Shown piece after piece: positions 6,871 through 33,824 of a stretch of 64,000 nt of DNA (its first letter is position 1; every line of letters begins with the position of its first letter). The position numbers were made by a program, and so were the translations under genes. The notes beneath the pieces were generated by a model. It saw only the letters and a list, made by a program, of their open reading frames with translations, did no database searches and was not told where the DNA came from. This DNA comes from an uncultured Rhodopila sp. Its GTDB lineage: Bacteria > Pseudomonadota > Alphaproteobacteria > Acetobacterales > Acetobacteraceae. The stretch covers positions 124,001 to 188,000 of the forward strand of contig CAIZFE010000086.1 of the NCBI GenBank assembly GCA_903932145.1. Reading direction: 5' to 3'.

Positions 6871-7112
6871 GTGCTTATCCCTATCCGGTTGGAGCGTGCA
6901 TAAGGGGTTCGCTGGCTTGGGGGAAGAGAGCCGGTCAGGCCGGAGGCTTTTCCATCGCGGCGGCGCGGGACGCGGTTGACCTCGGACTGATAGCCTTTGC
7001 CGTCGTCGGCCCGGGATTGGAACCCGTCCAGCAGCCTGTGGCGAGGTGTCCTGTCGCGTTTGATTGCGCCGCCACCCGGCTCGCATTAGGTTTTCGCCAG
7101 GAGGGCTAGTCG

Positions 7113-7700
7113 ATGACCCTGGCGGCGCGCCGTATCGACCCGGACGTTTGGACCAGGGAGCAGTTCCTGGCCTGGGCCGAAGCGCATGCCGGCGACCGCG
7201 GTTACGAGTTCGATGGGGTCCGGCCGGTGGCAATGGCGCCAGCGACGCTCGGGCACAACGAAATCGCCCGGAACATTCGCGAGACACTGCGCGACCGGTT
7301 GCCCTCGGGAATGGGGTGTAAAACCTACGGTCCGCAGCAACCGATCGAGACAGTCGGCGGCGCCCTGCGGGAGCCGGACGCTTTCATCGCCTGCTCGGCG
7401 CCGCGGCGGACGTCTGTTACCATCGCCGCGCCTGTCATCGTGTTTGAGGTGTTGTCGCCCGGGCGGGAAAACCGGCACCGTGACGAGACTGAGAGGGTCG
7501 ATGAGTACGAGTCGGTGCCGACCATCCTGCGCTATGTGATTGTCGAGTCCGAGAGCCGCGGCGTCCGCGTGTTCTGGCGTGAACCGGGGGAGCGCGCTTG
7601 GCGCGGGGAACCTTTGGACGCCGGCGGGCCGCTGCGTTTGCCAGAGTTCGGAGTGGATTTGGGGTTCGACGAGATCTACGAGGGCGTCGCGTTCGACTGA
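7113..7700 (+). CDS. Uma2 family (DUF820) putative endonuclease
   Basis: Third Uma2 paralogue, 195 residues. Conserved positions include [40 protein letters not shown] with the conserved Glu, and [15 protein letters not shown] 7113 is supported by AGGAGG about 9 bases upstream. It differs most from the other two copies after residue 100. It is monocistronic and followed by the promoter and TA remnants at 7.75-9.1 kb. Confidence 0.9.
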
Positions 7701-7752
7701 CAGGGCGTTGGCGTTAACGTCGTAGCACACGGGATCAGTTCTGGTCCGACCA

Positions 7753-7789
7753 TTGATCTGTAAATACTGTAGCGGTATAATCACAGTAT
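7753..7789 (+). promoter_or_regulatory. Sigma70-type promoter with operator-like inverted repeat
   Basis: TTGATC (7753-7758), a 17-base spacer and a perfect TATAAT (7776-7781) form a near-consensus promoter. ATACTGT (7764-7770) and ACAGTAT (7783-7789) are a 7-bp inverted repeat flanking the -10 box, well placed for repressor binding. It points toward the DUF5397-vapD pair, as expected for an autoregulated TA operon. The predicted transcript start near 7788 is about 250 bases before DUF5397. Confidence 0.65.
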
Positions 7790-8027
7790 GGCCCTGGGGG
7801 CGCTTTGGTCGGTCTATGGCGGCCAAATGTTTGAGTCCATCTATATCAAGGCGACGGACTCATCGGAGCGGATCGATGGCCCCTGGATGGTGCCACACCA
7901 ATTCGTTCTTATCTATGTTCCCGTTCGCGGCACGATCTTGGATCGGCGTGACGATCGCGGCCCAGGCGGCCCCGATCTTTGCCTGGGAACAGCGGGCCTG
8001 GTAGCCGAAGCCTCCCAACCGTGTTAA
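7788..8027 (+). CDS. Unrecognised small ORF downstream of promoter
   Basis: A 79-codon frame starting at ATG 7788, essentially at the predicted transcription start, so it would be leaderless. The product (MALGALWSVYGGQMFES...) matches no family I know. Codon bias is only moderately protein-like, and other frames are also open. It may instead be untranslated leader or a decayed gene. It is listed because it fills the gap between the promoter and DUF5397. Confidence 0.25.
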   Translation: MALGALWSVYGGQMFESIYIKATDSSERIDGPWMVPHQFVLIYVPVRGTILDRRDDRGPGGPDLCLGTAGLVAEASQPC

Positions 8028-8036
8028 GGTCTGGTT

Positions 8037-8255
8037 ATGGATCAGGCCTACTCAGACTCGCCCAGGATGCCCGTGCCGGCCAATCTGGTCGGGACTTGGC
8101 GCCGCTTTGGTGCGGTCGGGCCTGTGTACGAAATCATCCGTGCGGGTGACGAACTACCCGGCGGCGACTGCCTGATGCGTATCCGTGTCGTCGAGTCCGG
8201 AGAGGAAATTGACTACCGCCTCACGGAAATCCTGGACGACCCGCGGGAGCGCTGA
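8037..8255 (+). CDS. DUF5397 family protein (VapD partner, putative antitoxin)
   Basis: A 72-residue protein with the DUF5397 pattern: NLVGTWRRFGAVGPVYEII, GDCLMRIRVVESGEEIDYRL and a final acidic EILDDPRER. DUF5397 genes are commonly found directly before vapD, and here the stop TGA (8253-8255) overlaps the vapD start ATG (8255-8257) by one base. A role as antitoxin or regulator of VapD is inferred from that coupling. The gene itself looks intact even though its partner is broken. Confidence 0.8.
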   Translation: MDQAYSDSPRMPVPANLVGTWRRFGAVGPVYEIIRAGDELPGGDCLMRIRVVESGEEIDYRLTEILDDPRER

Positions 8256-8539
8256 TGTTCGCCATCGCGTTCGACCTCGTGGTCGCCGAGGCAGCACAGA
8301 ATCATCCCAAGGGTGTGTGCAGGCGTATGCCGATATCGGCGCTACGCTAGCGAATTTCGGCTTCGACCGGGTGCAGGGCAGTCTCTACACGACCCCGTCC
8401 GAGGATTTGGCTAACCTGTTCAGCGCGATCTCGGCATTGAAGGCGCTGCCTTGTCTGCCGCCCTCCCTGGGTGCGGGATATCCGAGCCTTCCGGGCGGAA
8501 CAGTGGTCGGATTTCACGCAAATGGTTAAGGCGCCGTAA
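8255..8539 (+). pseudogene. vapD: vapD (virulence-associated protein D) with two compensating frameshifts
   Basis: VapD is a Cas2-related toxin ribonuclease. The first 21 codons read MFAIAFDLVVAEAAQNHPKGV, the normal VapD start. One base is then missing near 8316 (GTG TG CAG where GTG NNN CAG is expected), and the frame stops at TAG. Read in the next frame, the protein continues QAYADIGATLANFGFDRVQG and SLYTTPSEDLANLFSAISAL. A net +1 (about four extra bases, CTGG) near 8466-8470 restores the first frame, which then reads VRDIRAFRAEQWSDFTQMVK and ends at TAA 8537-8539. All conserved VapD blocks are therefore present but split over two frames. The highly conserved Trp after ALP is Cys. Either a recent pseudogene or sequence error. 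Confidence 0.85.
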
Positions 8540-8589
8540 GGGCCTGTCCCGGTCTATTGGTCGAAAGACCGCATCTGAACCGTGCCGGT

Positions 8590-8909
8590 TTACTCAAGGA
8601 CCGCATAGGTGCCGGCGGACAAGCCCGCGGCAACCTCGACGATCCGCTCGCTCAGCGCCAAGACATCGCTGCGCCGGTTGACCGGCAGCACGAGGATGCA
8701 AATGGTGCGGCCGGTCAGGTTCTGTTGCGCGAACATGTTTCGGTCAGCCGTGATCAACAGGTCGACCCCCCCCCTCCATTTCCGCGAGCAAACGGCCATT
8801 CTGGATCTTTTTTCCAGCCAACATCGCTATCGATGACGGACTTGACCAGATGGTCGCGAAATGCCGCTTTCAATTGGACCGGAATGTTATCGTCCAACAG
8901 GATACGCAA
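8590..8909 (-). pseudogene. DUF5615 PIN-like toxin with two homopolymer frameshifts
   Basis: DUF5615 proteins are PIN-like presumed RNases paired with DUF433 antitoxins. From TTG 8909 the frame reads RILLDDNIPVQLKAAFRD and VIDSDVGWKK. A run of six A (five expected) then shifts it. The next frame reads IQNGRLLAEMEGG until a run of nine G (eight expected; C9 on the plus strand, 8766-8774) shifts it again. The last frame reads VDLLITADRNMFAQQNLTGR and ICILVLPVN, and ends at 8590. The order and spacing match an intact DUF5615 protein. Both lesions lie in homopolymers, so phase variation or sequencing error is as likely as decay. The start lies 2 bases after the DUF433 stop. Confidence 0.82.
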
Positions 8910-8911
8910 CG

Positions 8912-9115
8912 CTACGCGGCCTTCAGGCTGGCGCAAGCCCCTTCAAGGCAGGCAATCACATCGGCCCTGTTGAGACTTGGATAAGACTGGATAATGTCGT
9001 CAATCGACAGGCCGTCCTCAAGGTTTTCAAACAACACCTCAACCGGCACGCGCGTCCCGCGGAAGACGGGGCGGCCACCCAATATTTCGGGGTCTTGCAC
9101 AATCACACTGGCCAT
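8912..9115 (-). CDS. DUF433 domain antitoxin
   Basis: A 67-residue DUF433 protein (HTH-like antitoxin family) starting MASVIVQDPEILGGRPVFRG, then TRVPVEVLFENLEDGLSIDD and SYPSLNRADVIACLEGA, all standard for the family. ATG 9115 has GAGG 7 bases upstream. It precedes the DUF5615 toxin remnant in the usual antitoxin-toxin order. The antitoxin is intact while the toxin is broken, which is the survivable order of decay. Confidence 0.88.
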   Translation of the reverse strand: MASVIVQDPEILGGRPVFRGTRVPVEVLFENLEDGLSIDDIIQSYPSLNRADVIACLEGACASLKAA

Positions 9116-9465
9116 GGCTGCCTCGCTGGTCCGGACTGACTTCCGGTCACAACATAATACAGTGGCTGCAAAAAAAAACACGCTGCTCCGGCGACGTGCC
9201 GACTATTCACTGCCAGCATTCCCTTTGCTGGCTCCCGATCCGATTGCCGCCACGAACTTGCATCCCTCGGCAGACGCCCAATGTCATCGACCATCCTCAC
9301 CTGATGCGGCGGCCCCGGCGCTCGGGTGAACGCCTGTTGTAGTGACCCACACCAGGGCACCGCCCGAGCAAACGGACGTAAGGGCGGGTTTGCCTGCAAG
9401 GCGGCATATCCACCGCCCCCACGGGGACTTGCCCTTCCTCTCTATCGTCGCCATCTAGTGACGCT
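9116..9465. other. Intergenic region between DUF433 and hslV
   Basis: 350 bases holding the divergent upstream regions of the DUF433 gene and hslVU. An A-rich run (about 9172-9178) stands out. I see no ORF with family resemblance and no clear heat-shock promoter. Confidence 0.5.
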
Positions 9466-10032
9466 ATGCAGAACACAACACTCGCCGCTGCCGATCCGAT
9501 CGGGTGGCACGGCACCACCATCCTGTGCGTAAGGCGGGATGGCAAAGTGACCATGGCCGGGGACGGTCAGGTCAGTATGGGTCAGACCATCGTCAAGGGT
9601 AACGCCCGCAAAGTGCGCCGCATTGGCGCGGGGGGCGCCGTGATTGCCGGGTTCGCCGGGGCCACAGCCGATGCGTTCACCTTGCTCGAACGCCTGGAAT
9701 CCAAGCTGGAGCGATACCCCAACCAGCTCGAACGCGCCTGCGTCGAACTCGCCAAGGACTGGCGCACCGACCGCTACCTGCGCCGCCTGGAAGCGCTGAT
9801 GGCCGTTGCCGACAAGGACCGCAGCTTCACCCTCACCGGCAACGGCGACGTGCTGGAGCCGGAAGACGGCGTCATCGGCATCGGCTCCGGCGGCAACTAT
9901 GCATTGGCGGCTGCTCGTGCGTTGATGGACGTTCCCGACCTCACGGCCGAGGAAATCGCGCGCCGGTCCATGCGGATCGCCTCGCAGATTTGCGTCTATA
10001 CCAACGGCAACATCATTATCGAGTCACTGTAA
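9466..10032 (+). CDS. hslV: ATP-dependent protease peptidase subunit HslV (ClpQ)
   Basis: Proteasome-related threonine peptidase that forms a double-hexamer core capped by HslU and degrades misfolded or regulatory proteins in the cytoplasm. At 188 residues, [20 protein letters not shown] places the catalytic Thr at residue 17, implying removal of a 16-residue propeptide as in many alphaproteobacteria. [51 protein letters not shown] and [14 protein letters not shown] are all family signatures. hslU follows after 1 base, so the two are co-transcribed. ATG 9466 is the only start that preserves the propeptide. Confidence 0.97.
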
Positions 10033-10033
10033 C

Positions 10034-11356
10034 ATGGACGTCCCCACATACTCGCCGAGAGAGATCGTCTCGGAATTGGATCGATTCATCGTGGGTCAGG
10101 ACGACGCCAAGCGCGCGGTGGCCATCGCGCTGCGCAACCGCTGGCGCCGGCAACAACTCCCCGACGGCATCCGCGAGGAAGTCGTGCCGAAGAACATTCT
10201 CATGATCGGCCCGACCGGCTGCGGTAAGACGGAAATCGCCCGCCGGCTGGCGAAGCTCGCTCAGGCCCCGTTCCTGAAGGTCGAAGCGACCAAGTTCACC
10301 GAGGTCGGCTATGTCGGCCGCGACGTGGACAGCATCATCCGCGACCTGGTCGATGCCAGCCTGAACATGCTGCGTGAATCCAGCCGCAAGGGCGTCCAGG
10401 CCAAGGCAGAAGCCAACGCCGAGGAACGTCTGGTCACCGCTCTGGTTGGTGAGGAAGCCGCCGCCGACACGCGGTCGAAATTCCGCCGCATGCTGCGCAA
10501 TGGCGAGTTCGAGCAGAAAGAGATCGAGGTCGCCGTCGCCGATGCCGGCAGTTCCCCGATCGGCCAGTTCGATATGCCCGGCATGCCGCCCGGTCAGGTG
10601 ATCAACCTGAGCGAGATGATGAAGGGCATTATGGGCAATCGCCCCCTGCAAAAGCGCCGCATGACGGTGGAAGCCGCGCGCCGGATCATCGAAGCCGAGG
10701 AAGCCGACCATTTGCTCGACAACGAGCAACTCACGAAAGACGCGGTCTTCCACGCCGAGAACAACGGCATCGTCTTCCTCGACGAAATCGATAAAATCTG
10801 CGCTCGGACGTCCGAAGGCGGATTGCGCGGTGGCGACGTCAGCCGGGAAGGGGTGCAGCGCGACCTGCTGCCGCTGATCGAGGGCACCACGGTGAACACC
10901 AAGTATGGCCTGGTGAAGACCGATCATATTCTGTTCATCGCTTCCGGTGCGTTCACCCTGGCCAAGCCGTCCGATTTACTGCCGGAACTGCAAGGCCGCC
11001 TGCCGATCCGCGTCGAGCTGCTGCCGCTGACCCGCGCCGATTTGCGGCGGATTCTGATCGAACCCGAGCACTCGCTGCTGAAGCAATACGCGGCGTTGCT
11101 GGGGACCGAGAACGTGACGCTGGACTTCCGCGACGATGCGGTGGATGCCCTGGCGGAACTGGCGTCCGACATCAACGATCGGATCGAGAATATCGGTGCC
11201 CGGCGGCTGCACACGGTGCTGGAGCGGCTGTTGGAGGACATCAGCTTCTCCGCCACCGACCGGGGTGGCGAGACGTTCGTGGTGGATGCGGCATACGTGG
11301 CGGAAAAGGTGGCCCCGCTGGCGCAGAAGGGGGATCTGAGCAGGTTCATATTGTAA
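10034..11356 (+). CDS. hslU: ATP-dependent protease ATPase subunit HslU (ClpY)
   Basis: AAA+ unfoldase that feeds substrates into HslV. The 440-residue protein has Walker A GPTGCGKT (residues 59-66), the [15 protein letters not shown] segment, the intermediate domain (about 110-230), Walker B FLDEIDKI, and the C-terminal [19 protein letters not shown] sensor-2 region. It ends with GDLSRFIL, the tail that docks into HslV. It is coupled to hslV (1-base gap). Its stop codon TAA (11354-11356) sits inside the -35 box of the promoter for the downstream TA pair. Confidence 0.98.
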
Positions 11357-22306: not shown

Positions 22307-22951
22307 TCAAGCCAGTAGCCCGGGAACAGCCTTGACAAGAATACGTTTGAACTCTGCCCACAATGGAAGCACATCATCATTCGGCGCGAGATGCCGGGCC
22401 AAAGCCCCATGCCCCAGATTCGGATCAAGGTCGAACTTGATGTGCTGAACCAGGAAATGCTCAAACGCCTTCAACGTGGCACCATGCCACTGCGTTGATG
22501 TCAATATTGCATTAAACACTCTTTCGAGGCCGCGATCCTCGTAACTGGCGATACTCCGCGCTCGGATCGCGAGGTCCATCTGACGGATGTTGGCTAAATA
22601 GACTCGGCCAATTTCGTCCACCGCCGGTCTCCGGCTGCTGTCGATCGGCAATAATTCCAGTGATCGCCGAATGAATTCGTCGTGATCAAGCCGTTCTTCG
22701 GCATGCGCCACGCCCGGCCATGGAGACAGATTCGCTGTGTCGCATTCACCCGCTTCGAGTTCGATCAGCTTTTCATCGTCGGGATGGAGGTCGCGCGCGA
22801 TTTGAAGGTTTTCGCGGAATTGAATGGAGAAGTAGTAGTATATCGTCGCTACGTCGGTGAGTTCCTCTGACGTCAGATCCCTCCAGTTCAGCTCGCATAT
22901 CGAATCAACGACCTGCTCGTATTGGAATGTTTCACCGAGTTTCAAAGTCAT
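22307..22951 (-). CDS. Haem-oxygenase-like fold protein (candidate), unknown function
   Basis: A 214-residue, largely helical cytosolic protein. ECDTANLSPWPG, LDHDEFIRRSLELLP and especially FLVQHIKFDLDPNLGHGALA recall haem-oxygenase-like (TENA/DUF3050-type) proteins, where His/Glu/Asp residues on helices can bind a diiron centre. SIASYEDRGLERVFNAIL is another helical block. Such proteins include N-oxygenases and desaturases in natural-product pathways. It lies divergently upstream of the metY-metA-decarboxylase-ACP genes, suggesting membership of that cluster. The family assignment is by eye and moderate. Confidence 0.5.
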   Translation of the reverse strand: MTLKLGETFQYEQVVDSICELNWRDLTSEELTDVATIYYYFSIQFRENLQIARDLHPDDEKLIELEAGECDTANLSPWPGVAHAEERLDHDEFIRRSLELLPIDSSRRPAVDEIGRVYLANIRQMDLAIRARSIASYEDRGLERVFNAILTSTQWHGATLKAFEHFLVQHIKFDLDPNLGHGALARHLAPNDDVLPLWAEFKRILVKAVPGLLA

Positions 22952-23409
22952 CCCCTTTTTCCAGATCGGGCCGGAGTTCGGATGTAGTCCGAAGGTCTCA
23001 ACCTAAGATCGACGGCGGTCTGTTGGCAAACTGAATCCGTTCACGATTGCTTTTCCGAATTGAGCGCGCAGGCAAATTTTATTGTGCGTGCATCCATCGT
23101 CTTCACAAGAAACGGAGCAAGCCGCCCGGTCCCCCTTGGATTACAGCGTTCAAGCGCACTCTCCGATGGCACGCGGCTGCTGATGACATCGCCCAAAGGT
23201 GACTGCCGTACGGTCGCGTGGTTTTGTGTTGCGGCGCTGCTTCTCGAACGCGTTAAATCCGATGGCGTTACGGGCTGACCATCGTCAACAAGGCGGTCAC
23301 AATCAGGCATGGCAACGGGCTGACGCGGCAGCAGGCGCCTTGATGACCATGGGGTTTTCTCGGCTGCACGCACGAAATGCCGGATCGATAATTGCATAGG
23401 ATGCTGTAG
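22952..23409. other. Intergenic region upstream of the metY-type gene
   Basis: 458 bases between divergent genes. I see no convincing ORF, tRNA or SAM-II riboswitch core. A short frame (23199-23399) has a C-terminal piece resembling small mobile-element-associated ORFs of alphaproteobacteria, but too weakly to call. Confidence 0.4.
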
Positions 23410-24738
23410 ATGCGTAGCGAAACGATTGCAATTCACGGCGGCTACGATGTCGATCCCACGACGCGTGCAGTGGCCGTGCCGATCTACCAAACGGTTGCGT
23501 ATGCGTTCGACAGTGCCGAACACGGCGCCGCGCTCTTCAACCTGGAGCAAGAGGGCCACCGATACAGCCGCATCAGCAATCCGACCACAGCCGTACTTGA
23601 AAAGCGGGTGGCTGCGCTTGAGGGCGGCATCGACGCGCTCTGTGTCAGTTCCGGACAAGCCGCACTGAACTATTCGGTGCTCGGGTTAACTGAAAACGGC
23701 TCGAATATCGTATCTGTTCCGAAACTATATGGCACGAATCATACGCTCTTTGCCCATGTTTTGCCAAAGCTTGGAATCGACGTGCGGTTCGCGGCCAGCG
23801 ATCGGCCGTCGGCCATCGAGCGAATGATCGATGATCGCACCCAAGCCGTGTTCTGCGAAAGCGTCGGCAATCCGGCAGGTAACATATGCGATATCGAGGC
23901 GCTTGCCGCTGTCGCGCACAAGCACGGGGTACCCTTGCTGGTTGACAACACCGTCGCCACGCCAATGTTGCTGCGCCCGATCGATTACGGGGCGGATATC
24001 GTCGTGCATTCCCTCACGAAATTCCTCGGCGGCCACGGAACCACCATGGGTGGGATCATCGTTGACAGTGGTAATTTTCCCTGGGAACGGCATGCCACAC
24101 GCTTTCCAATGTTTAGCGAACCCGATGCTTCGTACCATAACATGGTCTACAATCATCATTTCGGTCGCGCCGCTTACATCGCCCGCTGCCGTAGCGTCTT
24201 TCAACGCACCATGGGTGCTGTGTTGTCCCCGCTCAGTGCGTTCCTACTACTCCAGGGGATCGAGACGGTCGGCGTGCGCATCGACCGGCATGTTGACAAC
24301 GCCAGGCGCGTGGCTGAATTCCTGCGCGACGACCAGCGGGTAGATTGGGTCAACTACGCCGGGTTCGCTGACAATCCATACCACACGCTGGCGCAAAAAT
24401 ATCTCGGTGGCCGCGCCTGTTCGATCATGACGTTCGGGATACGCGGCGGATTCGATGGTGGAACGGCGTTTTACAACGCGCTCGGTTTGATCAAACGGTT
24501 GGTGAACCTCGGCGATGCGAAATCGCTGGCCTGTCATCCGGCTTCCACGACGCACCGGCAGATGTCGCTCGAAGAGCAGCGCAACGCCGGGGTGACACCG
24601 GAAACGATCCGCCTCAGCATTGGAATCGAGCACATCGATGACATCGTTTCTGATCTGGATCAAGCGCTTGATGCGGCCCTGAGCCAGGTCACGTCGGGTC
24701 CGACTGATCGGGATCGCCATCCGGCCAAGGAAAGTTAA
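23410..24738 (+). CDS. O-acylhomoserine aminocarboxypropyltransferase-like PLP enzyme (MetY type)
   Basis: Cys/Met-metabolism PLP enzyme of 442 residues. MetY replaces the acyl group of O-acetyl- or O-succinyl-homoserine with sulfide, giving homocysteine; relatives use other nucleophiles. It shows PIYQTVAYAF, YSRISNPTTAVLEKRVAALE, the PLP-binding region GGIDALCVSSGQAAL, VDNTVATPMLLRPIDYGADI and the Schiff-base Lys204 in VVHSLTKFLGGHGTTMGG. The final HPASTTHRQMSLEEQRNAGV is the standard substrate loop. A MetA-type gene follows after 4 bases, so the pair would make and use O-acylhomoserine. In this context it may serve a specialised pathway rather than methionine synthesis. Confidence 0.92.
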   Translation: MRSETIAIHGGYDVDPTTRAVAVPIYQTVAYAFDSAEHGAALFNLEQEGHRYSRISNPTTAVLEKRVAALEGGIDALCVSSGQAALNYSVLGLTENGSNIVSVPKLYGTNHTLFAHVLPKLGIDVRFAASDRPSAIERMIDDRTQAVFCESVGNPAGNICDIEALAAVAHKHGVPLLVDNTVATPMLLRPIDYGADIVVHSLTKFLGGHGTTMGGIIVDSGNFPWERHATRFPMFSEPDASYHNMVYNHHFGRAAYIARCRSVFQRTMGAVLSPLSAFLLLQGIETVGVRIDRHVDNARRVAEFLRDDQRVDWVNYAGFADNPYHTLAQKYLGGRACSIMTFGIRGGFDGGTAFYNALGLIKRLVNLGDAKSLACHPASTTHRQMSLEEQRNAGVTPETIRLSIGIEHIDDIVSDLDQALDAALSQVTSGPTDRDRHPAKES

Positions 24739-24742
24739 GGCA

Positions 24743-25804
24743 ATGGGGAAAGCCATCGGTTCGGAGCAAGCGAATCGCGTTGAACCGGACGCGGAGGACG
24801 CTATTGTCATTGGCTTTGTGAACAATATGCCGGATGCCGCGTTGCGCACGACAGAGCGGCAATTCCGGGATTTGCTTTTGGCGGGGCCGTTCGGCAATCG
24901 CGTTTCCATCCGATGGTTCTGCTTACCTGACGTTCCGCGGGCGGATATTATTCAACCGTATCTTCACCAGCACTATGAGACGATCGACAATCTTTGGACG
25001 AGCGATCTCGATGGTCTTATCGTAACCGGGGCGGAGCCACGCGCGCCGGGCCTGAAGCAAGAGCCCTATTGGAACACACTTGCCCGATTAATCGATTGGG
25101 CCGAAGACCACACCGTTTCGACGGTGTGGTCCTGTCTGGCGGCACACGCTGCTGTGCTTCATCTGGACGGCATCGACCGCAGCCCGCTGGATGAAAAGCT
25201 CTCCGGGGTGTTCGACTGTCAGAAGGTGGCTGACCACCCTTTGGTGTCGGGCATGCCGGCGACGTGGCGCATTCCCCATTCGCGATACAACGGATTGCCT
25301 GCCAAAGCCCTTGAGGCAATGGGCTATCAGATAATCTCCACATCTAAAGATGCTGGCGCGGACCTTTTCGTCAAGCAGCGATCCAGCCTGTTCATCTTCG
25401 CCCAGGGACACCCGGAATACGACCCTGACGCGTTATTCCGCGAATACCGCCGCGACATCACGCGGTTCCTTTCCGGTGAAAGGAATGATTTTCCTGAAGC
25501 GCCAAGGTTCTACTTCGATCACAAGACGGCTGCCGCATTGGAAGCGTTTCGGTTGCGTGCGCTTGAACGACGCAATACGGATATTCTTGTGGAACTTCCA
25601 GTCGGGATCGCGGAGGTCATGCTGACGCATCCCTGGCGGGAACCGGCGAGAGGCATCTACGCGAACTGGGTTGCCTATCTGGCAGCGCAAAAATCTCAAT
25701 ATGCGGGCGGCGCGAGGCATCACCATCTGTCCGCCGACCAGATGAGCAGATCGCTCGCCAGCGATCTTCGGCATGCTCACCACGATTTCACACGCGGCCT
25801 GTAA
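24743..25804 (+). CDS. Homoserine O-acyltransferase-like protein (MetA family), divergent
   Basis: MetA-family protein of 353 residues, which would acylate homoserine from an acyl-CoA. The glutamine-amidotransferase-like core is intact: nucleophile Cys131 in TVWSCLAAHAAV, and the His223-Glu225 pair in FAQGHPEYDPDA. EKLSGVF, PHSRYNGLPA and the C-terminal IYANWVAYLA also match. It differs at a key site: the residue aligned with E. coli Gly111 (Glu in acetyl-specific enzymes) is Arg100 (GLIVTGAEPR), so the acyl donor cannot be assigned. It has an N-terminal extension poor in conservation. It is 4 bases after the MetY-type gene and overlaps the decarboxylase by 32 bases. Confidence 0.87.
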   Translation: MGKAIGSEQANRVEPDAEDAIVIGFVNNMPDAALRTTERQFRDLLLAGPFGNRVSIRWFCLPDVPRADIIQPYLHQHYETIDNLWTSDLDGLIVTGAEPRAPGLKQEPYWNTLARLIDWAEDHTVSTVWSCLAAHAAVLHLDGIDRSPLDEKLSGVFDCQKVADHPLVSGMPATWRIPHSRYNGLPAKALEAMGYQIISTSKDAGADLFVKQRSSLFIFAQGHPEYDPDALFREYRRDITRFLSGERNDFPEAPRFYFDHKTAAALEAFRLRALERRNTDILVELPVGIAEVMLTHPWREPARGIYANWVAYLAAQKSQYAGGARHHHLSADQMSRSLASDLRHAHHDFTRGL

Positions 25805-27206
25805 CGTGGACAATCCGGCGTCGCCGCTTTTTCTCAGTGACCACGATCGTCGGGATTGGGACGACTATCTAACCCGCGCGTTGGCCGCCGCCCATCAACG
25901 CGTCGCCGCTGGCCCGGTCACGCCACGACTGGACCTCGCGGCCTTTCGCGATGAGCTTGCGGCTTTCGATTTCCAGGCACCGCGCCAGGCCGAACACCTC
26001 CTGTCCTGGACGATCGCACAGATGGAGCATGGCATCGTTCATGTCACCCATCCTCGTTATTTCGGACTGTTTAATCCCGCACCGACAACGCCGGCCCAAT
26101 GGGCGGATCGAATCGCAAGCGCATTCAATCCGCAGCTTGCGACCTGGACTACGTCCCCGGCGGCGGTCGAGATAGAGGCACATGTGATTCGTTCGGTTAT
26201 CCGGCGTGCCGGGCTTCCGGTCGGGGCAGCGGGTCATTTTACCACCGGCGGAGCCGAGGCCAACTATACGGCGCTCATCTGCGCCCTGACGCGCGCGGAC
26301 CCCGGGTTCGCGGTGGATGGGGTCCGATCATTTCCGGGTCGCCCGGTGTTTTACATCTCAAAAGAGAGTCATCTCGCGTGGCTCAAGATCGCGCATCAGG
26401 CGGGTATCGGCCGGTCGGCGGCCAGACTGATCGCCACGGATGGGTCAGGCCGGATGGATACCAACGCCTTGGCCGCTGCCATAGCGAATGACCGGGCATC
26501 GGGGTGCATCCCTGTCATGGTCGTTGCGACGGCGGGCACGACCAATGCCGGTATGATAGATCCGCTCTCAGAATGTGCTGAACTGGCCCGGATCGAGGGC
26601 GCATGGTTCCACGTCGATGCCGCGTGGGGTGGAGCAGTCATCGCGTCCGGCAGGCATCGGCAGGTGCTGACCGGGATCGAACAAGCCGATTCCGTTACGA
26701 TCGATGCGCACAAATGGTTTGCAACCACCATGGGCTGCGGCATGGTCCTGACGGCGCATCCCGCCGTCCTGTCATCGGCATTCGCTGTTTCCACGGGCTA
26801 TATGCCCTCAAACGATCGTGAGCGCGATCCGTATGTCCTATCGCTCCAATGGTCGCGGCGTTTCCTTGGATTGCGCTTATTCTTGTCGCTGGCGCTGGGC
26901 GGGTGGGATGCCTATGGGGACCACGTCGAGCATGCGATTGATCTGGCGGAACGCCTCAGCGCCGCCCTCGCGGCGCGAGGCTGGCGGACGGTCAACCGGT
27001 CTTCTCTTGCCGTACTGTGTATCGAGCCACCGCCGAACTCTGCCGACGTCCGATCAATCGTTAACAAGGTCCTGGCCTCCGGGCGCGGTTGGGTTTCGGT
27101 GGCCACGTTTGAAGGGCGGGACGTCATTCGCGCCTGTATAACGCACGGCGAAACAACGGTACAGGATATCGAGACGCTTGTGGATGTTCTCGCGGAGGCG
27201 GAATGA
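25773..27206 (+). CDS. PLP-dependent amino-acid decarboxylase (group II)
   Basis: Group II decarboxylase (aromatic-amino-acid/glutamate/diaminobutyrate type), 477 residues from ATG 25773; GTG 25806, just past the metA-type stop, is an alternative start. VTHPRYFGLFNPAPTTPAQW is the substrate-side N-terminal block, GHFTTGGAEANYTAL binds phosphate, SKESH has the PLP-stacking His200, FHVDAAWGGA has Asp282, and Lys314 in TIDAHKW is the Schiff-base residue. It releases CO2 to give an amine; the substrate is unknown. Overlap with the MetA-type gene and the nearby ACP suggest the substrate is a homoserine-derived amino acid or another building block of the cluster. Confidence 0.9.
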   Translation: MLTTISHAACNVDNPASPLFLSDHDRRDWDDYLTRALAAAHQRVAAGPVTPRLDLAAFRDELAAFDFQAPRQAEHLLSWTIAQMEHGIVHVTHPRYFGLFNPAPTTPAQWADRIASAFNPQLATWTTSPAAVEIEAHVIRSVIRRAGLPVGAAGHFTTGGAEANYTALICALTRADPGFAVDGVRSFPGRPVFYISKESHLAWLKIAHQAGIGRSAARLIATDGSGRMDTNALAAAIANDRASGCIPVMVVATAGTTNAGMIDPLSECAELARIEGAWFHVDAAWGGAVIASGRHRQVLTGIEQADSVTIDAHKWFATTMGCGMVLTAHPAVLSSAFAVSTGYMPSNDRERDPYVLSLQWSRRFLGLRLFLSLALGGWDAYGDHVEHAIDLAERLSAALAARGWRTVNRSSLAVLCIEPPPNSADVRSIVNKVLASGRGWVSVATFEGRDVIRACITHGETTVQDIETLVDVLAEAE

Positions 27207-27264
27207 GCCTCGCCTGGTGAGCTTGCGGGTGCGTCAGTTGGACAATCCAGTCATTGAGGTAAAA

Positions 27265-27510
27265 ATGTCAACCAGATCTATTATAATTGAAGAAATGGTA
27301 AGAATTGCCCAACAACAGAAAAAAACACTGTCGCCGTTGACAGACGAGCTTCCTCTGCTCAACTCAGGGCTGGATTCGCTTTGTATCGCGGTGCTGGTCG
27401 CGTCTTTGGATGACAGCCTGGGTATCGATCCGTTTGATCGTGACGGCGACGTTCCATTTCCTGTGACAATTGGCGATTTTGTTTCGCTCTATGAAAACGC
27501 GGCGGCCTGA
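27265..27510 (+). CDS. Stand-alone acyl carrier protein
   Basis: An 81-residue carrier protein. LLNSGLDSLCIAVLVASLDD contains the phosphopantetheine attachment Ser38 in the DSL motif, and the protein is acidic and helical as expected. ATG 27265 follows GAGGT with a 4-base spacer. Its AT-rich start and position 58 bases after the decarboxylase point to an accessory, pathway-specific carrier rather than the fatty-acid-synthesis AcpP. A dedicated acyl or aminoacyl intermediate is probably carried here. It converges with the FATP-type ligase, 54 bases away. Confidence 0.85.
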   Translation: MSTRSIIIEEMVRIAQQQKKTLSPLTDELPLLNSGLDSLCIAVLVASLDDSLGIDPFDRDGDVPFPVTIGDFVSLYENAAA

Positions 27511-27564
27511 ACGCGCTCAGCGAAAAATCCACCAACAACGCCGGCAGTATCGCCGACGGGCAGG

Positions 27565-29373
27565 TCAAAGGCGGCGCCTACCGTCACCGATCTCCTGCAC
27601 CAGCGATGCGTCGCAAGCCACGAAGCGGTTGCCTCCCCGGTCGTTGAACCAAACCGGGTCGGTTGAATCGGCGTAGCCCTGTTGCGCAAATTTGCCCTTC
27701 GTCAGCTTGAAGGTTCCGGTGACGTCCAGGCTCGCGCCGCGGCGAACGAACAACGGATGCGCGTAGGCGGGCAGATGCGCCGCCAAATGAGCACTTAGTT
27801 CCGTAAAATCGAAGCGGTGATCGGTTGTGATCGCGGCCATGCCGGCTCGGCCTTCATTCCCCGGCACCGTCACGCCATAAACGATCGCATCGGTCACACC
27901 CGGGCACGTGCGAAGCACCTCGGCAACCTGGGTGGTTGATACGTTTTCGCCCCGCCAGCGGAAAGTGTCGCCGATACGGTCAACGAAGTAGAAAAATCCT
28001 GCCGCGTCTTTCCGCATGAGATCGCCGGTGCGGAACCACCGGTCACCTTCGACGAAGACGTTGCGCAGCATCTTGCGTTCCGATGCCGCCCGATCCGTGT
28101 AGCCGTCGAAGCGTCGAGCGGACACATCGGAAGCTTGCGGAAGCTGTCCGATTGCCTCGCCCGCTTCGTCGACGCCGCAGGCGATGCAGAGCCCGGCCGC
28201 ATCCCGTAGCGGGGTTGATGTTTCTGGATCGCATTTTATGAGCGCCACCGGGAAACGATGCGCCAGGAATGGAGGTATGCGGCCAATGGCGCCGGGCTTA
28301 CCCTCACAATTGTATAGCGAGACGATGCCTTCCGTGGCCGCGTAGAATTCCAGGATTCGCGGGATTGCAAAGCGCGGCTGGAAATCGTTCCAGACATCGC
28401 CCTGTAGCCCGTTGCCGCAGGCCAGCCGCAGCCGATGCTGCCGCTCCCGCGCGTGCGGCGGAGTCAGGGTGAGGTAGCGGCAAAGCTCACCGATATACTG
28501 AAAGATCGTGCATTCGGAGTCCGCGACATCATCCCAGAAACGGTTGGCGGAGAATCGTTGACGGATCACCACCGAACCGCCTCTGACCAGCATGGCGCCG
28601 ATGGCGACGATTCCTCCGGTGCTGTGGTACATCGGCAGACAATTGTAGAGGCGGTCGGTTGATTGGACATCCATCATGCCAGCGAACCAAAGGCTCCATT
28701 CCAGCACACGTCCGTGGGTGACGTTGGCCGCCTTCGGCAGGCCTGTGGTGCCGGAGGTGTAGATCAACAACGCCCGGTCGGCCGCCGCGGGTTCCCGGCA
28801 TTCGGCGGCATTGAGCCGTTCCGTGCTCAGCGTCGCGATCTCTGGCTCAATCCGGGACCATGGGCTTGGCGCGGGTGCGCCATGTATCCAGACGCGCAGG
28901 CCCGGAGGAAGCCGATCCGCCACCGCCGCCACGGCGGAGAGCAGGGCGCTCCCCACGATCAGGTGAGTCGCACCGGCGGCCTGGATACTGTGCAGCAACG
29001 CCTCGGCGACCATATTGGTGTTGATCAATGCCACGGCGCAGCCGGTGCGCGTCACACCCAACCAGATCGCGACATAATCTGGACGGTTGGGCATCAGCAG
29101 GCAGACCACATCGCCTTTGCCGAGACCGTGCGCGATTGTCCACCTTGCGTATCGGTTCGACCGAGCCGCGAGTTCGCGATAGCTGAAATGTTCCGCCTCG
29201 CCCGACAGCGCGGGGCGATCGGCATAAGTGTCCGCGAGCGCATCCAGTCGGGCGGCGAGCATGGCCGGACGGGTGTCCGGCGCCACGCGAGTGTATTCAA
29301 GAGCGCGAATCCAGGCCTGCAACGCCGTGCTTCGTGCCGTTTGATCGGGCGCGGGCGAGTTGTTTTGCATCAC
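27565..29373 (-). CDS. Long-chain acyl-CoA synthetase, FATP/FadD-like
   Basis: ANL-superfamily adenylating enzyme of the FATP (very-long-chain acyl-CoA synthetase) branch, 602 residues. The P-loop-like IYTSGTTGLPKAANVTHG lies at about residues 204-221. LPMYHSTGGIVAIGAMLVRG, CTIFQYIGELCRYL and LEFYAATEGIVSLYNCEGKP are FATP signatures, and the C-terminal catalytic Lys region is VTGTFKLTKGKFAQQG. It activates a fatty acid as acyl-AMP then acyl-CoA, or possibly loads it on the neighbouring ACP. It is on the opposite strand to the ACP but ends 54 bases from it, so the link is by proximity only. Confidence 0.9.
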   Translation of the reverse strand: MMQNNSPAPDQTARSTALQAWIRALEYTRVAPDTRPAMLAARLDALADTYADRPALSGEAEHFSYRELAARSNRYARWTIAHGLGKGDVVCLLMPNRPDYVAIWLGVTRTGCAVALINTNMVAEALLHSIQAAGATHLIVGSALLSAVAAVADRLPPGLRVWIHGAPAPSPWSRIEPEIATLSTERLNAAECREPAAADRALLIYTSGTTGLPKAANVTHGRVLEWSLWFAGMMDVQSTDRLYNCLPMYHSTGGIVAIGAMLVRGGSVVIRQRFSANRFWDDVADSECTIFQYIGELCRYLTLTPPHARERQHRLRLACGNGLQGDVWNDFQPRFAIPRILEFYAATEGIVSLYNCEGKPGAIGRIPPFLAHRFPVALIKCDPETSTPLRDAAGLCIACGVDEAGEAIGQLPQASDVSARRFDGYTDRAASERKMLRNVFVEGDRWFRTGDLMRKDAAGFFYFVDRIGDTFRWRGENVSTTQVAEVLRTCPGVTDAIVYGVTVPGNEGRAGMAAITTDHRFDFTELSAHLAAHLPAYAHPLFVRRGASLDVTGTFKLTKGKFAQQGYADSTDPVWFNDRGGNRFVACDASLVQEIGDGRRRL

Positions 29374-29550: not shown

Positions 29551-29916
29551 TTATCGCTGCATCTGCATGATCCGGTCCATCGGCATCATGTTCTGATTCA
29601 GATGCGCCATGATCCATAGCGAACCACCGATCAACAGAATCACGATCAGCACGCCGAACGCCAGCGCCATAACGTTGTTGACGTTATCCGGCCCCGTCGT
29701 GATGTGGAGGAAGAACACCAGATGCACGCCCATCTGCGCGATTGCCAACACAGCCAGCGCGACGGGAATGCTCGGTTGCCAAACCAGAGTCGTTTGGGCG
29801 ACGAAGAACGACACGCCGGTCAGCAGGATGGCCAGGCCCAGCCCAACCACATAGCCGGCAATGCCTTCGGTTCCTTCGTCACCGGGTGCGAGGTCGGGAT
29901 CTTCAGCGGGGCTCAT
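29551..29916 (-). CDS. cyoD: Cytochrome o ubiquinol oxidase subunit IV (CyoD)
   Basis: Small membrane subunit (121 residues) of the bo3-type quinol oxidase, thought to help assembly of the copper site. Three transmembrane helices are visible: GIAGYVVGLGLAILLTGVSF, IPVALAVLAIAQMGVHLVFF and VMALAFGVLIVILLIGGSLW. ATG 29916 overlaps the cyoC stop (ATGA). It is last in the cyoABCD order; no cyoE (haem O synthase) follows, so that gene must lie elsewhere. Confidence 0.94.
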   Translation of the reverse strand: MSPAEDPDLAPGDEGTEGIAGYVVGLGLAILLTGVSFFVAQTTLVWQPSIPVALAVLAIAQMGVHLVFFLHITTGPDNVNNVMALAFGVLIVILLIGGSLWIMAHLNQNMMPMDRIMQMQR

Positions 29917-30524
29917 TGTCCGGCTCCCATCAGGTAAACCACGGTGAACACGCCAATCCAAACGATATCCAGGGCATGCCAGAACAGGCTGAAGCACAAG
30001 ACGCGCCGAAGAATGTCCGGCCGGTACCCTTTGGCGAAAACCTGAGCCATCATTGTCAGCAACCACAGCAATCCGGCCGAAACGTGCAGTCCATGACAGC
30101 CCACCAGGGTGAAAAACGCTGACAGGAACGCGCTGCGGCTCGGTCCGGCCCCGCGCGCGACCATGCCGGCGAATTCCCGAACCTCGATGCTGAGAAATCC
30201 AAGTCCCAACAGGAAGGTGACAGTCATTGCGCCATAAAACAAAAGATCGCGCCGCGTCTGCGCCCCGATGCTGGCAAGCCCACATGTAAAACTGGACAGC
30301 AACAGACAGCCTGTCTCGATCGCTACGCTGTCCAGGTTGAACAGATCACGCCCGGTCGGGCCCCCCGCGGTCGCCCTGGCCAGCACCGCATAGGTGGCGA
30401 AAAAGGCCGAGAACATGATGATGTCGCTGAGCAGGAAAATCCAAAATCCGTAGCCGGTGACGATGCGCTTCGATAACAGCTCGCTCATCTGGTGCGAATC
30501 GGCCGTGGCCGGAGCGCCGTTCAT
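29913..30524 (-). CDS. cyoC: Cytochrome o ubiquinol oxidase subunit III (CyoC)
   Basis: Haem-copper oxidase subunit III, 203 residues with five transmembrane helices. [38 protein letters not shown] and [19 protein letters not shown] are characteristic, and [20 protein letters not shown] forms the last helix. ATG 30524 overlaps the cyoB stop (ATGA), indicating translational coupling. Upstream in-frame codons belong to the shadow of cyoB. Confidence 0.95.
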
Positions 30525-32524
30525 CGAACCGGCCGTAGGTTCGCCAGCGCCAGTTCCCTTGAACGGCGGTTGGCGCGGGCGATGCGGGCGATCTTGGAGG
30601 CGGGGATGATGTAGTCCGGAACATCCCGCCACGCGAAGACGACGAAGGTGGCGAACGCGCCCACCGCCGCCACGGCGACCATCCACCAGATGTGCCAGAT
30701 CAGCGCGAAACCCATGAAGGTGGCAAAGAAGGCGCAGATGAAACCGGTGGGGCTGTTCCGGGGCATCTCGATGGCGGCGTAGGCTGGTTCCTCACTTAAT
30801 GCGGCGTGGGCGATAGCGCGCTGTTTGATGGCCCAGTAGGCATCCCCGCCCTCGACATGCGGCAGCACGGGAAAATTAAACGCAGGGGGAGGAGACGGCG
30901 TCGCCCACTCCAGCGAGCGGCCGTTCCAGGGATCGCCGGTGGTGTCGCGCAGTTCCACACGGTCGCGAATACTGACGACAAGTTGCACCACCTGCAGAAC
31001 AATGCCGGCCAGGATCACCAGGGCGCCAGCAGCGGCCGCCAGCAGCCATGGGTGCCATTCGGGAACGTCGTAATGCTGCATACGCCGGGTCATGCCCTCC
31101 AGGCCCAACACGTACAGTGGCCCGAACGCAAGATAGAACCCAACCAGCCAGCACCAGAAGGCGGCGACACCCAGACCTTCATGGAGCCGGAAGCCGAACG
31201 CTTTGGGGAACCAATAGCTGTAGCCCGCGAAGCCCCCGAACAGCACGCCGCCGATGATCACGTTATGGAAATGAGCGACCAGAAACAGGCTGTTGTGCAG
31301 CACGAAATCGGCCGGCGGCACGGCCAAAAGCACACCCGTCATGCCACCGATGGCGAACGTCACCATGAAACCCAACGCCCAAAGCATGGGCGGAGCAAAA
31401 ACGACCCTCCCGCCGTACATGGTAAAGAGCCAATTAAAGATCTTCACGCCGGTGGGTACGGCGATAATCATCGACATGATCCCGAAGATCGCATTGACGT
31501 CAGCACCCGCGCCCATGGTGAAGAAGTGGTGCAACCACACGGTGAACGACAGCAGGCAAATCGCCATTGTCGCCATCACCATTGACCGGTATCCGAACAG
31601 CGGTTTACCCGAAAATGTCGCAACCACCTCGGAGAACACGCCGAAGGCTGGCAGGATCAGGATGTAAACCTCCGGGTGGCCCCACGCCCAGATCAGGTTC
31701 ATGAACATCATCACATTCCCGCCGGCTTCGTTGGTGAAAAAGTGAAAGCCGAGGTAGCGATCCAGCAGCAGCATCGCCAATGTGGCGGTCAGGATCGGGA
31801 AGGCGGCGACGATCAGCAAATTGGACGCCAACGCCGTCCAGCAGAACATCGGCATCCGCGTGTACGTCATACCGGGGGCGTGAACCTTCAGAATGGTCGT
31901 TACCAGATTGACGCCGGACACCAGGGTGCCAACGCCGGAAATCTCCAACGCCCACAGGTAGTAATCCGGACCCACCCCGGGCGAGTAAGTCAGTTCCGAC
32001 AACGGCGGATAGGGCAGCCAACCGGTGCGGGCGAACTCGCCGACAACCAGCGAGATATTCACCAACAGGGCCCCGGTCGCGGTCAGCCAGAACCCCACCG
32101 AATTCAATGTGGGGAACGCAACATCGCGAATACCGAGCTGCAAAGGCACGACGAAATTCATCAAGCCGATCATAAACGGCATAGCTACGAAGAAGATCAT
32201 CAGCGTGCCGTGCGCCGAGAAGATCTGATTGTAGTGTTCGGGCGGCAAATAGCCGGGGGACTGAAACGCCAGGGCTTGTTGTGATCGCATCATGATCGCG
32301 TCGGTAAAGCCGCGCAGCAGCATGATCAGAGCCAGGATCGTGTACATCTCACCGATCCGCTTATGATCGACGCTGGTGATCCATTCGTTCCACAGATAGG
32401 GCAGATGTCCCTTTACAATGACCCAGATCAGAACACAAACAATAACCGAACCAACCAAGGCCGCCGCCACCAACGGAATCGGCTGATCGAACGGAATGGC
32501 GCTCCAGGACAGTTTGCCCAACAT
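30521..32524 (-). CDS. cyoB: Cytochrome o ubiquinol oxidase subunit I (CyoB)
   Basis: Catalytic subunit (667 residues) reducing O2 to water and pumping protons. Haem and copper ligands are visible in [16 protein letters not shown] (low-spin haem His), [17 protein letters not shown] (CuB His and cross-linked Tyr), [14 protein letters not shown] (two CuB His) and [17 protein letters not shown] (both haem His). The N-terminal [19 protein letters not shown] is typical of CyoB rather than aa3 oxidases. It is 18 bases after cyoA and overlaps cyoC by 4 bases. Confidence 0.97.
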
Positions 32525-32542
32525 GCGGTTGCTCCGTCGATG

Positions 32543-33451
32543 TTAATGTGCACTGCGGGGCGATACGTCCAGCGATGGTGTGCCGGTTTGCGGACCCGGT
32601 CCGGGAGGCAGTTCCTGCCGAACGATTTTCTGGAACAGCCCGGCTTCCGAGTCTTTGTAGGTGAATGGCTCGACCGCGATACTTTGAATCATCAGGTGGC
32701 GGTAGGTGCCGGTATCCAGCGCGCTGCCGGTGTTGCGCGTGGCGGCGACCCATGCCTGGAATTCATCCGCCGGCATCGCGTGGACCTCAAAGTGCATGTC
32801 GGAAAATCCGTCGCCACTGTAATGACTGGACAGGCCGTGGAAGCTGCCGGGTGCGCCGGCCTCCAGGTTCAACTGTGTCGCCATGCCGTTCATAGTATAG
32901 ATCATGCTTCCGAGAGCAGGAACGAAGAACGCATTCATCACGCTAGCGGATGTCAGCGAGAAATGGACCGGCACGCCGGCGGGAATAACCAATTGGTTCA
33001 CGCTCGCGACATGTTGGTCGGGATAGATGAACAACCATTTCCAGTCCATCGACACGCCCTGAACCTCCAGCGGCGACGATGGGGATGCCAGTGGTGTCGC
33101 CGGATCCAGGTCGTGCGAGCCGATCCAGGCCACCCCTCCGAGAAGCATGATTGTCAGGAGAGGAATGCCCCAGACAATCAATTCGATGCGCCCGGAATAG
33201 GCCCAGTCCGGCCAGTATCGCGCCCGCATATTCGACACGCGGAACCACCAGGCGAATCCGAGCGTCGCGGCAATTGTCGGCAGGACGATCGCGAGCATGA
33301 TGGCCAGCGAATCGATGAGGATGGTTTTCTCGGATAATCCGACGAAGCCTTTCGGGTCGAGAATGGCCGCCTGACAGCCGGTCAGCATCAGCGGAAGGAC
33401 GATGATCAGCCGCCCCGGTGGGCCGTGCCGACGGTCTGACGCGGCGCGCAT
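32543..33451 (-). CDS. cyoA: Cytochrome o ubiquinol oxidase subunit II (CyoA)
   Basis: Membrane-anchored cupredoxin-like subunit, 302 residues from ATG 33451 (GGGGAAG upstream); ATG 33487 is an alternative. A lipobox (LMLTGCQ) marks lipid attachment. Two transmembrane helices follow (IDSLAIMLAIVLPTIAATLG and LIVWGIPLLTIMLLGGVAWI), then the periplasmic domain with VQGVSMDWKWLFIYPDQHVA, SVMNAFFVPALGSMIYTMNG and FHGLSSHYSGDGFSDMHFEV. The CuA ligands of cytochrome c oxidases are absent, which confirms quinol as electron donor. First gene of cyoABCD. Confidence 0.95.
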   Translation of the reverse strand: MRAASDRRHGPPGRLIIVLPLMLTGCQAAILDPKGFVGLSEKTILIDSLAIMLAIVLPTIAATLGFAWWFRVSNMRARYWPDWAYSGRIELIVWGIPLLTIMLLGGVAWIGSHDLDPATPLASPSSPLEVQGVSMDWKWLFIYPDQHVASVNQLVIPAGVPVHFSLTSASVMNAFFVPALGSMIYTMNGMATQLNLEAGAPGSFHGLSSHYSGDGFSDMHFEVHAMPADEFQAWVAATRNTGSALDTGTYRHLMIQSIAVEPFTYKDSEAGLFQKIVRQELPPGPGPQTGTPSLDVSPRSAH

Positions 33452-33824
33452 CGTGAACTTCCCCCACTTTGCCGGTACAGCCATCATCCTGCCCTCCAGG
33501 TTGGCCTGATGGCTTCCCCAGAGCGACCTGTGGCCGCTTCGGTTCCAGACATTTGGTCATGCGCCGGATTTTGTGTCCAACGGGACGCGACCTTCCGCAA
33601 CCGGTCGCACGCCTGATTGTTAAACGGGGTGCGCCCGACGCCATCCGCGATCTTAGCCGATTGACTCGGCCGGTTCGCTTCGCCACCCTCCAACCGGCAG
33701 GAAAAAACCAAAAACGAGGGGATCGGGGGCGTATGGCAGGCTGTGGCTGCATCGGCATTTCGTGCGACGCACGGATGAAAACGACGTGCGAAGCCCTTTC
33801 ACCCGGCGCGGTGGGCAAGAGCGC
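33452..33824. other. Divergent intergenic region between cyoA and livF
   Basis: 373 bases that must contain the cyo promoter (minus strand) and possibly a liv promoter (plus strand). I see no ORF with homology and no clear FNR/ArcA/NrdR site. GCGACC...GGTCGC near 33589-33605 is a short imperfect repeat. Confidence 0.4.

What the first reader, a model, noticed from the sequence alone, without database searches (positions are those of the whole stretch)
22307..29373. Uncharacterised cluster: haem-oxygenase-like protein, MetY, divergent MetA, PLP decarboxylase, lone ACP and FATP ligase
MetY and MetA types are 4 bases apart, MetA overlaps a group II decarboxylase by 32 bases, and a stand-alone ACP with DSL serine follows 58 bases later. 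A FATP-type acyl-CoA ligase ends 54 bases from the ACP, and a candidate haem-oxygenase-like protein diverges upstream. This is not the normal methionine locus. A reasonable hypothesis (inference): homoserine is acylated and its gamma position replaced by MetY using sulfide or another nucleophile; the resulting amino acid is decarboxylated to an amine; and an acyl group activated by the ligase or carried on the ACP is joined to it, with the haem-oxygenase-like protein as an oxidative tailoring step. The product would be an N-acylated or otherwise modified small amine.
Basis: partly seen in the sequence, partly recalled or inferred. Interest (0 to 1): 0.82.

Follow-up and report, generated by a model that had tools for sequence, protein, structure and literature searches.

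The report
Conserved homoserine-derived small-molecule gene cluster
A rare set of genes, conserved in some soil and peat bacteria, very probably builds an unknown small molecule from homoserine, using an altered sulfhydrylase, a decarboxylase, a diiron oxygenase and a carrier protein; the product has not been identified.

Summary
The 22307-22951 protein models confidently as a haem-oxygenase-fold protein and keeps the six diiron-ligand positions of HDO enzymes (31 of 31 relatives). The cluster is real: of 32 distinct HDO loci, MetY lies nearby in 21, the decarboxylase in 18, MetA in 17, ACP in 14, FATP ligase in 12. A second ligase (14) and an SDR (15) belong to it; in this genome they sit beside paralogous HDO and ACP on another contig. 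It is not the methionine locus: MetX, MetZ, cystathionine gamma-synthase and two ordinary MetYs lie elsewhere. The cluster MetY has Arg51 (20 of 20 complete copies in HDO loci; Ile or Leu in 17 of 17 other MetYs) where a related lyase binds its second substrate, so its nucleophile may be acidic rather than sulfide. In Methylocystis-type loci an aminotransferase plus thiamine enzyme seem to replace the decarboxylase, so an amine product is uncertain. Against: Arg51 MetY-MetA pairs occur alone elsewhere; some clusters lack MetA, decarboxylase or HDO. Reactions, order and product are inferred. Verdict: real, unassigned, a new variant of a known kind.

The parts
22307..22951 (-). haem-oxygenase-fold diiron oxidase/oxygenase (HDO) candidate, 214 aa; predicted ligands E86, H90, E138, H170, D174, H181
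   Evidence: AlphaFold model pLDDT 94.8; best structural rows HamA, PolF, HrmI, CADD; ligand positions identical in 31 of 31; ligand pattern of MboA from PMC13185094
22952..23409 (.). intergenic region between the divergent HDO and MetY genes; no sigma-70-like site found
23410..24738 (+). MetY-like PLP enzyme (O-acylhomoserine gamma-replacement), Arg51/Thr109/His111 active-site variant
   Evidence: TIGR01326 597 bits; residue comparison
24743..25804 (+). MetA-like homoserine O-acyltransferase; Cys131, His223, Glu225 conserved
   Evidence: PF04204, NF003776 400 bits; alignment A3 of 19
25773..27206 (+). group II PLP decarboxylase; Lys314 of the PLP motif invariant
   Evidence: PF00282; alignment A4 of 17; overlaps MetA by 32 bases
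27265..27510 (+). stand-alone acyl carrier protein, 81 aa, DSL phosphopantetheine serine
   Evidence: alignment A5 of 16, GLDSL invariant; ATG at 27265
27565..29373 (-). FATP-type acyl-CoA ligase
   Evidence: NF006134 712 bits vs cut-off 625; found in 12 of 32 HDO loci

Best explanation
This is a specialised small-molecule pathway. Inferred chemistry: MetA acylates homoserine; MetY replaces the acyl group at the gamma carbon with a nucleophile that probably carries an acidic group, giving a gamma-substituted amino acid; the PLP decarboxylase removes its alpha-carboxylate (in Methylocystis-type loci an aminotransferase plus a ThDP enzyme do so by another route); the HDO oxidises an intermediate with O2; FATP and LIG460 activate carboxylic acids, LIG460 loading the ACP; the SDR reduces or oxidises the acyl group; and a GNAT-like or an MBOAT protein found beside the ACP in other loci transfers it to an acceptor. 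Shown here: the gene set, its recurrence, HDO fold and ligand positions, the MetY residue change, and other methionine genes in the genome. Inferred: each reaction, their order, and the product.
For: 32 distinct HDO loci with recurring neighbours; joint occurrence in the order sample. A MetY of 65% identity or more in 16 of 16 HDO genomes tried (not all were), also where the HDO stands alone (Methylocystis L027, L030). Own genome has MetX (526 bits, cut-off 331; below the TIGR01392 cut-off), MetZ (570, 510), CGS (584, 504.55) and two OAHS (602 and 585, 495). Arg51 in 19 of 19 class A MetYs aligned, 3 of 3 B, 1 BD, 1 D, 5 of 5 f8 pairs; Ile in 14 and Leu in 1 of 15 other MetYs of the same genomes, and 16 Ile plus 1 Leu when all 17 fetched are read; Ile in the solved OAHS and FUB7 sequences shown. 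HDO model and ligand positions. Cluster-type decarboxylase not found in 21 genomes with MetA or MetY of this kind (15 hold only 28-35% relatives); the ThDP orthologue (62-100%) only in the 4 class B genomes of 18.
Confidence: 0.55

Rival explanations
1. Back-up methionine locus: MetA and MetY make homocysteine from sulfide, and the HDO, decarboxylase, ACP and ligase are unrelated neighbours.
For: MetY-MetA pairs stand alone in two other families (L092-L095, L104; L100, L101); MetY passes TIGR01326 and MetA passes NF003776.
Against: The genome has MetX, MetZ, CGS and two ordinary OAHS; the neighbours recur in many genomes; Arg51 sets the enzyme apart from ordinary MetY.
Confidence: 0.07
2. MetY forms a carbon-carbon bond, as recalled for FUB7 and CndF in fungi, with a carbonyl nucleophile made by the ligase/ACP/SDR genes; decarboxylation and HDO oxidation then give a nitrogen heterocycle.
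For: FUB7 is a close solved relative (426 bits); acyl-activating genes are in the cluster; Arg51 could bind a beta-keto acid (inference).
Against: FUB7 has Ile at the Arg51 position and scores no higher than ordinary OAHS enzymes; no ketosynthase family recurs among the neighbours.
Confidence: 0.12
3. MetY uses sulfite or thiosulfate, giving a sulfonated amino acid (homocysteate) that the decarboxylase turns into homotaurine, which is then acylated.
For: Arg51 suggests an anionic nucleophile (inference); the decarboxylase matches cysteine-sulfinate decarboxylase and GADL1 (131 and 143 bits).
Against: It matches other group II decarboxylases better (196 bits to 4obu); no sulfite-handling family recurs among the neighbours; the HDO has no obvious role in this route.
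Confidence: 0.1
4. The ACP, LIG460 and MBOAT genes form a Dlt-like relay that puts the finished acyl group on a cell-surface polymer; the other genes make that group.
For: An MBOAT (168 bits to DltB, below its cut-off 375), a protein that looks SGNH/AlgJ-like by eye (only a sub-cut-off DUF1574 match) and a second ACP lie upstream in L011, L017, L019, L022, L024.
Against: Only 5 of 32 HDO loci have the MBOAT; other loci have a weakly matching GNAT-like protein instead (L008, L031, L042, L048, L049); neither was found in the window.
Confidence: 0.15

Closest known systems
HDO enzymes (MboA, PolF, HrmI, HamA, CADD)
   Same: fold; 3-His/3-carboxylate ligand pattern; HDOs often act on amino acids (PMC13185094)
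   Different: 9-15% identity to the HDO rows of the structural list; no Pfam/NCBIfam match; partners are MetA, MetY and a decarboxylase
OAH sulfhydrylase MetY (TIGR01326)
   Same: 597 bits, above cut-off 495; PLP lysine motif
   Different: Arg51, Thr109, His111 in place of Ile/Leu, Gly and mostly Trp (His111 in 18 of 19 class A)
FUB5/FUB7 of fusaric acid (FUB5 and pathway recalled)
   Same: homoserine acyltransferase plus MetY relative in a natural-product cluster
   Different: FUB7 has Ile at position 51; no polyketide synthase seen here; decarboxylase and HDO added
BesB/BesC of beta-ethynylserine (recalled)
   Same: gamma-type PLP enzyme together with an HDO
   Different: no MetA, decarboxylase or ACP there, as recalled
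Dlt system (DltA-D; organisation recalled)
   Same: ligase, carrier protein and MBOAT together in five related loci
   Different: weak DltB match; MBOAT not in the window

Membership tests
HDO (haem-oxygenase-like diiron enzymes) | haem-oxygenase-like helical fold | tested here: met
HDO (haem-oxygenase-like diiron enzymes) | three His and three Glu/Asp metal ligands | tested here: met
   E86, H90, E138, H170, D174, H181 identical in 31 of 31, matching by pattern MboA E86, H89, E143, H172, D176, H181; metal binding itself not tested
MetY, O-acylhomoserine sulfhydrylase | TIGR01326 score above cut-off | tested here: met
   596.8 vs 495.1 bits
MetY, O-acylhomoserine sulfhydrylase | uses sulfide to make homocysteine | not testable with these tools
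   active site differs at three positions
MetA, homoserine O-acyltransferase (PF04204) | profile score and catalytic Cys/His/Glu | tested here: met
   216.2 vs 27 bits, NF003776 400 vs 358; C131, H223, E225 invariant in 19; role of these residues recalled
Methionine biosynthesis locus | needed for homocysteine supply | tested here: inconclusive
   MetX, MetZ, CGS and two OAHS elsewhere in the genome make it unlikely; no knock-out
Group II PLP decarboxylase | PF00282 match with PLP lysine | tested here: met
   189.9 bits vs 27; K314 invariant in 17
Acyl carrier protein | PP-binding profile and DSL serine | tested here: inconclusive
   DSL serine invariant in 16; no Pfam match for the window copy, paralogue 20.7 vs cut-off 20.8
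FATP-type acyl-CoA ligase | NF006134 above cut-off | tested here: met
   712 vs 625 bits
Dlt system | MBOAT gene with the ligase and carrier at the locus | tested here: not met
   no MBOAT found in the window; present in 5 of 32 HDO loci

The most novel reading that the evidence does not exclude
Probability: 0.15. Interest if true: 0.82.

Novelty: new variant of a known kind. Interest (0 to 1): 0.62.

Why it matters
HDO enzymes do unusual oxidations on amino acids, and this HDO family has no profile in Pfam or NCBIfam. The cluster gives it defined partners and a predicted substrate class. The Arg51 change makes a cheap, concrete test of which nucleophile a MetY can use. Two gene solutions for removing the alpha-carboxylate (decarboxylase, or aminotransferase plus ThDP enzyme) narrow the pathway. 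Some carriers are records not marked as metagenome assemblies: Rhodopila globiformis DSM 161, Acidisoma sp. L85, Acidisphaera sp. S103, so laboratory work looks possible.

Tried and rejected
A sequence search of the HDO against the PDB gave nothing significant; the plasmid collection had no match; a phylum-wide profile search found the HDO in 1 of 398 genomes, our own. A fluopsin-like route using a purB-type lyase (recalled) was considered because purB lies upstream, and dropped: apart from the named cluster genes only two neighbour families (MBOAT, c10) recur in four or more loci. Literature: ten searches listed no paper that I recognised as describing this gene combination; they cover open-licence PMC papers only, several lists were capped, and three papers were opened. 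The divergent region shows no sigma-70-like site. LIG460 specificity could not be read: its PDB matches are weak and mixed. MetA acyl-donor type stayed open: the stretch TGAEPRA varies among relatives. Foldseek gave no match with E below 0.001.

Contexts L097 and L099 could not be called cleanly; L102 and L103 hold MetA without cluster-type MetY. Of 31 genomes with the MetA, contexts of 14 were fetched. L057 and L059 neighbours were named by similarity or in part only.

Full report
Observation. The six open reading frames, their spacing and overlaps are as described. MetY, MetA, decarboxylase and FATP ligase pass their profiles. The HDO and ACP have no profile match in the window.

Recurrence. 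The HDO is in 5 of 299 genomes of the order and 1 of 398 of the phylum sample. A scan of one genome each of 84,980 species gave 29 loci, four of them duplicates of earlier ones. With the window and own-genome paralogues there are 32 distinct HDO loci; counts in the DNA held, often a short contig, are MetY 21, decarboxylase 18, MetA 17, SDR 15, ACP 14, LIG460 14, FATP 12, HYD hydrolase 7, MBOAT 5, c10 5 (L022 MetY and L043 HDO are fragments). L043, the nearest relative of the window locus, also carries LIG460 and SDR next to the ACP. In the own genome these lie at C43 with an HDO (62%) and an ACP (59%) paralogue; LIG460 occurs there only (other matches are weak). A third HDO (C48) stands alone.

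Statistics. In the order sample the HDO is in 5, the decarboxylase in 5 and Arg51 MetY in 6 genomes; Fisher P 3e-10 (HDO, MetY), 3e-10 (decarboxylase, MetY) and 8e-8 (HDO, decarboxylase), uncorrected for relatedness. The Arg51 genome without HDO (G086) has its cluster on a 6,372-base contig that ends in the decarboxylase, so a gap is possible but not shown. Five further genomes have a MetY of the larger clade with Ile51: MetY-MetA beside a carrier-thioesterase and ligase (L056, L060; L057 by similarity), or beside a DUF3050 protein of the haem-oxygenase type and a ligase (L058, with a carrier; L059). None of the five has our HDO. So MetY-MetA lies beside two different haem-oxygenase-fold families in different genomes.

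Variants. In two Methylocystis genomes the MetY-MetA locus holds FATP, a cupin, an IlvE-like aminotransferase, a ThDP enzyme, a GNAT-like protein (weak match), ACP, LIG460 and SDR, with the HDO elsewhere. Similar loci (L091, L096) come from G499 and G583, where no HDO was found. Cluster-type decarboxylase was not found in 21 genomes with MetA or MetY of this kind but no decarboxylase beside it (15 have 28-35% relatives at E 1e-40). The ThDP orthologue (62% or more) is in 4 of 4 class B and 0 of 14 class A genomes, with 46-54% homologues in 3 of the 14. I read this as replacement: both routes remove the alpha-carboxylate (inference). Among the loci searched, the GNAT-like gene (L008, L031, L042, L048, L049) and the MBOAT (L011, L017, L019, L022, L024) do not co-occur.

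MetY active site. The residue before the Y-x-R motif is Arg51 in 19 of 19 class A MetYs aligned (18 HDO loci and G086), 3 B, 1 BD, 1 D and 5 of 5 f8 pairs, and in L013 and L043, read apart: 20 of 20 complete copies in HDO loci. It is Ile in class C (4), DUF3050 type (2) and f38 pairs (2), and Ile or Leu in 15 of 15 other MetYs aligned, 17 of 17 when all are read. The solved OAHS and FUB7 sequences shown have Ile; the own CGS has Asp, and two MetZ-like sequences of the set have Gln (own) and Ile (G307). In L. plantarum cystathionine gamma-lyase the corresponding residue, by motif, is E42, which binds the distal amino group of cystathionine (PMC7483736, passages); human E59 and yeast E48 are described likewise (PMC6073527, passages). 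An arginine there suggests an acidic group on the second substrate (inference). Thr109 (19 of 19) and His111 (18 of 19) change as well.

Methionine. The own genome has MetX, MetZ, CGS and two OAHS, so the pair is probably redundant for methionine. Yet Arg51 MetY-MetA pairs stand alone in five fetched loci of a family of 6-8 Mb genomes, and Ile51 pairs in two of f38; their role there is not known.

Reading. The cluster is best taken as a dedicated pathway from homoserine to a decarboxylated, oxidised and acyl-linked small molecule. Gene set, conservation, fold and residue changes are shown; chemistry and product are inferred.

Noticed in passing
L008 (G000:C43:26001-46000), 6739-10815: A second half-cluster in the same genome: GNAT-like gene, SDR, LIG460, ACP and an HDO 62% identical to the window's, without MetY, MetA or decarboxylase.
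   Followed up: partly
L058:1889-2698 and L059:3668-4477: DUF3050 proteins (with weak Haem_oxygenas_2 matches) beside MetY-MetA and a ligase (L058 also a carrier protein): another haem-oxygenase-type family beside MetY-MetA.
   Followed up: partly
L098:12017-14188 and L091:10143-12820: L098: an amino acid-[carrier protein] ligase (NF005479, 430 bits vs 357) and an acyl-CoA-dehydrogenase-like protein beside MetY-MetA. L091 has similar-looking genes (labels by eye) and a carrier protein beside its pair.
   Followed up: no
L092-L095, L104: MetY-MetA pairs followed by a polysaccharide deacetylase related to HfsH (190 bits, below cut-off 400; one copy, L092, scanned).
   Followed up: no
L043:10001-11224: HDO copy that matches only over residues 1-61 and is then broken; an intact relative (L015) is in the same assembly.
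   Followed up: no
29551-33487 (-): Cytochrome oxidase genes (COX4_pro Pfam match for 29551-30285; the rest read by eye) directly beyond the ligase.
   Followed up: no
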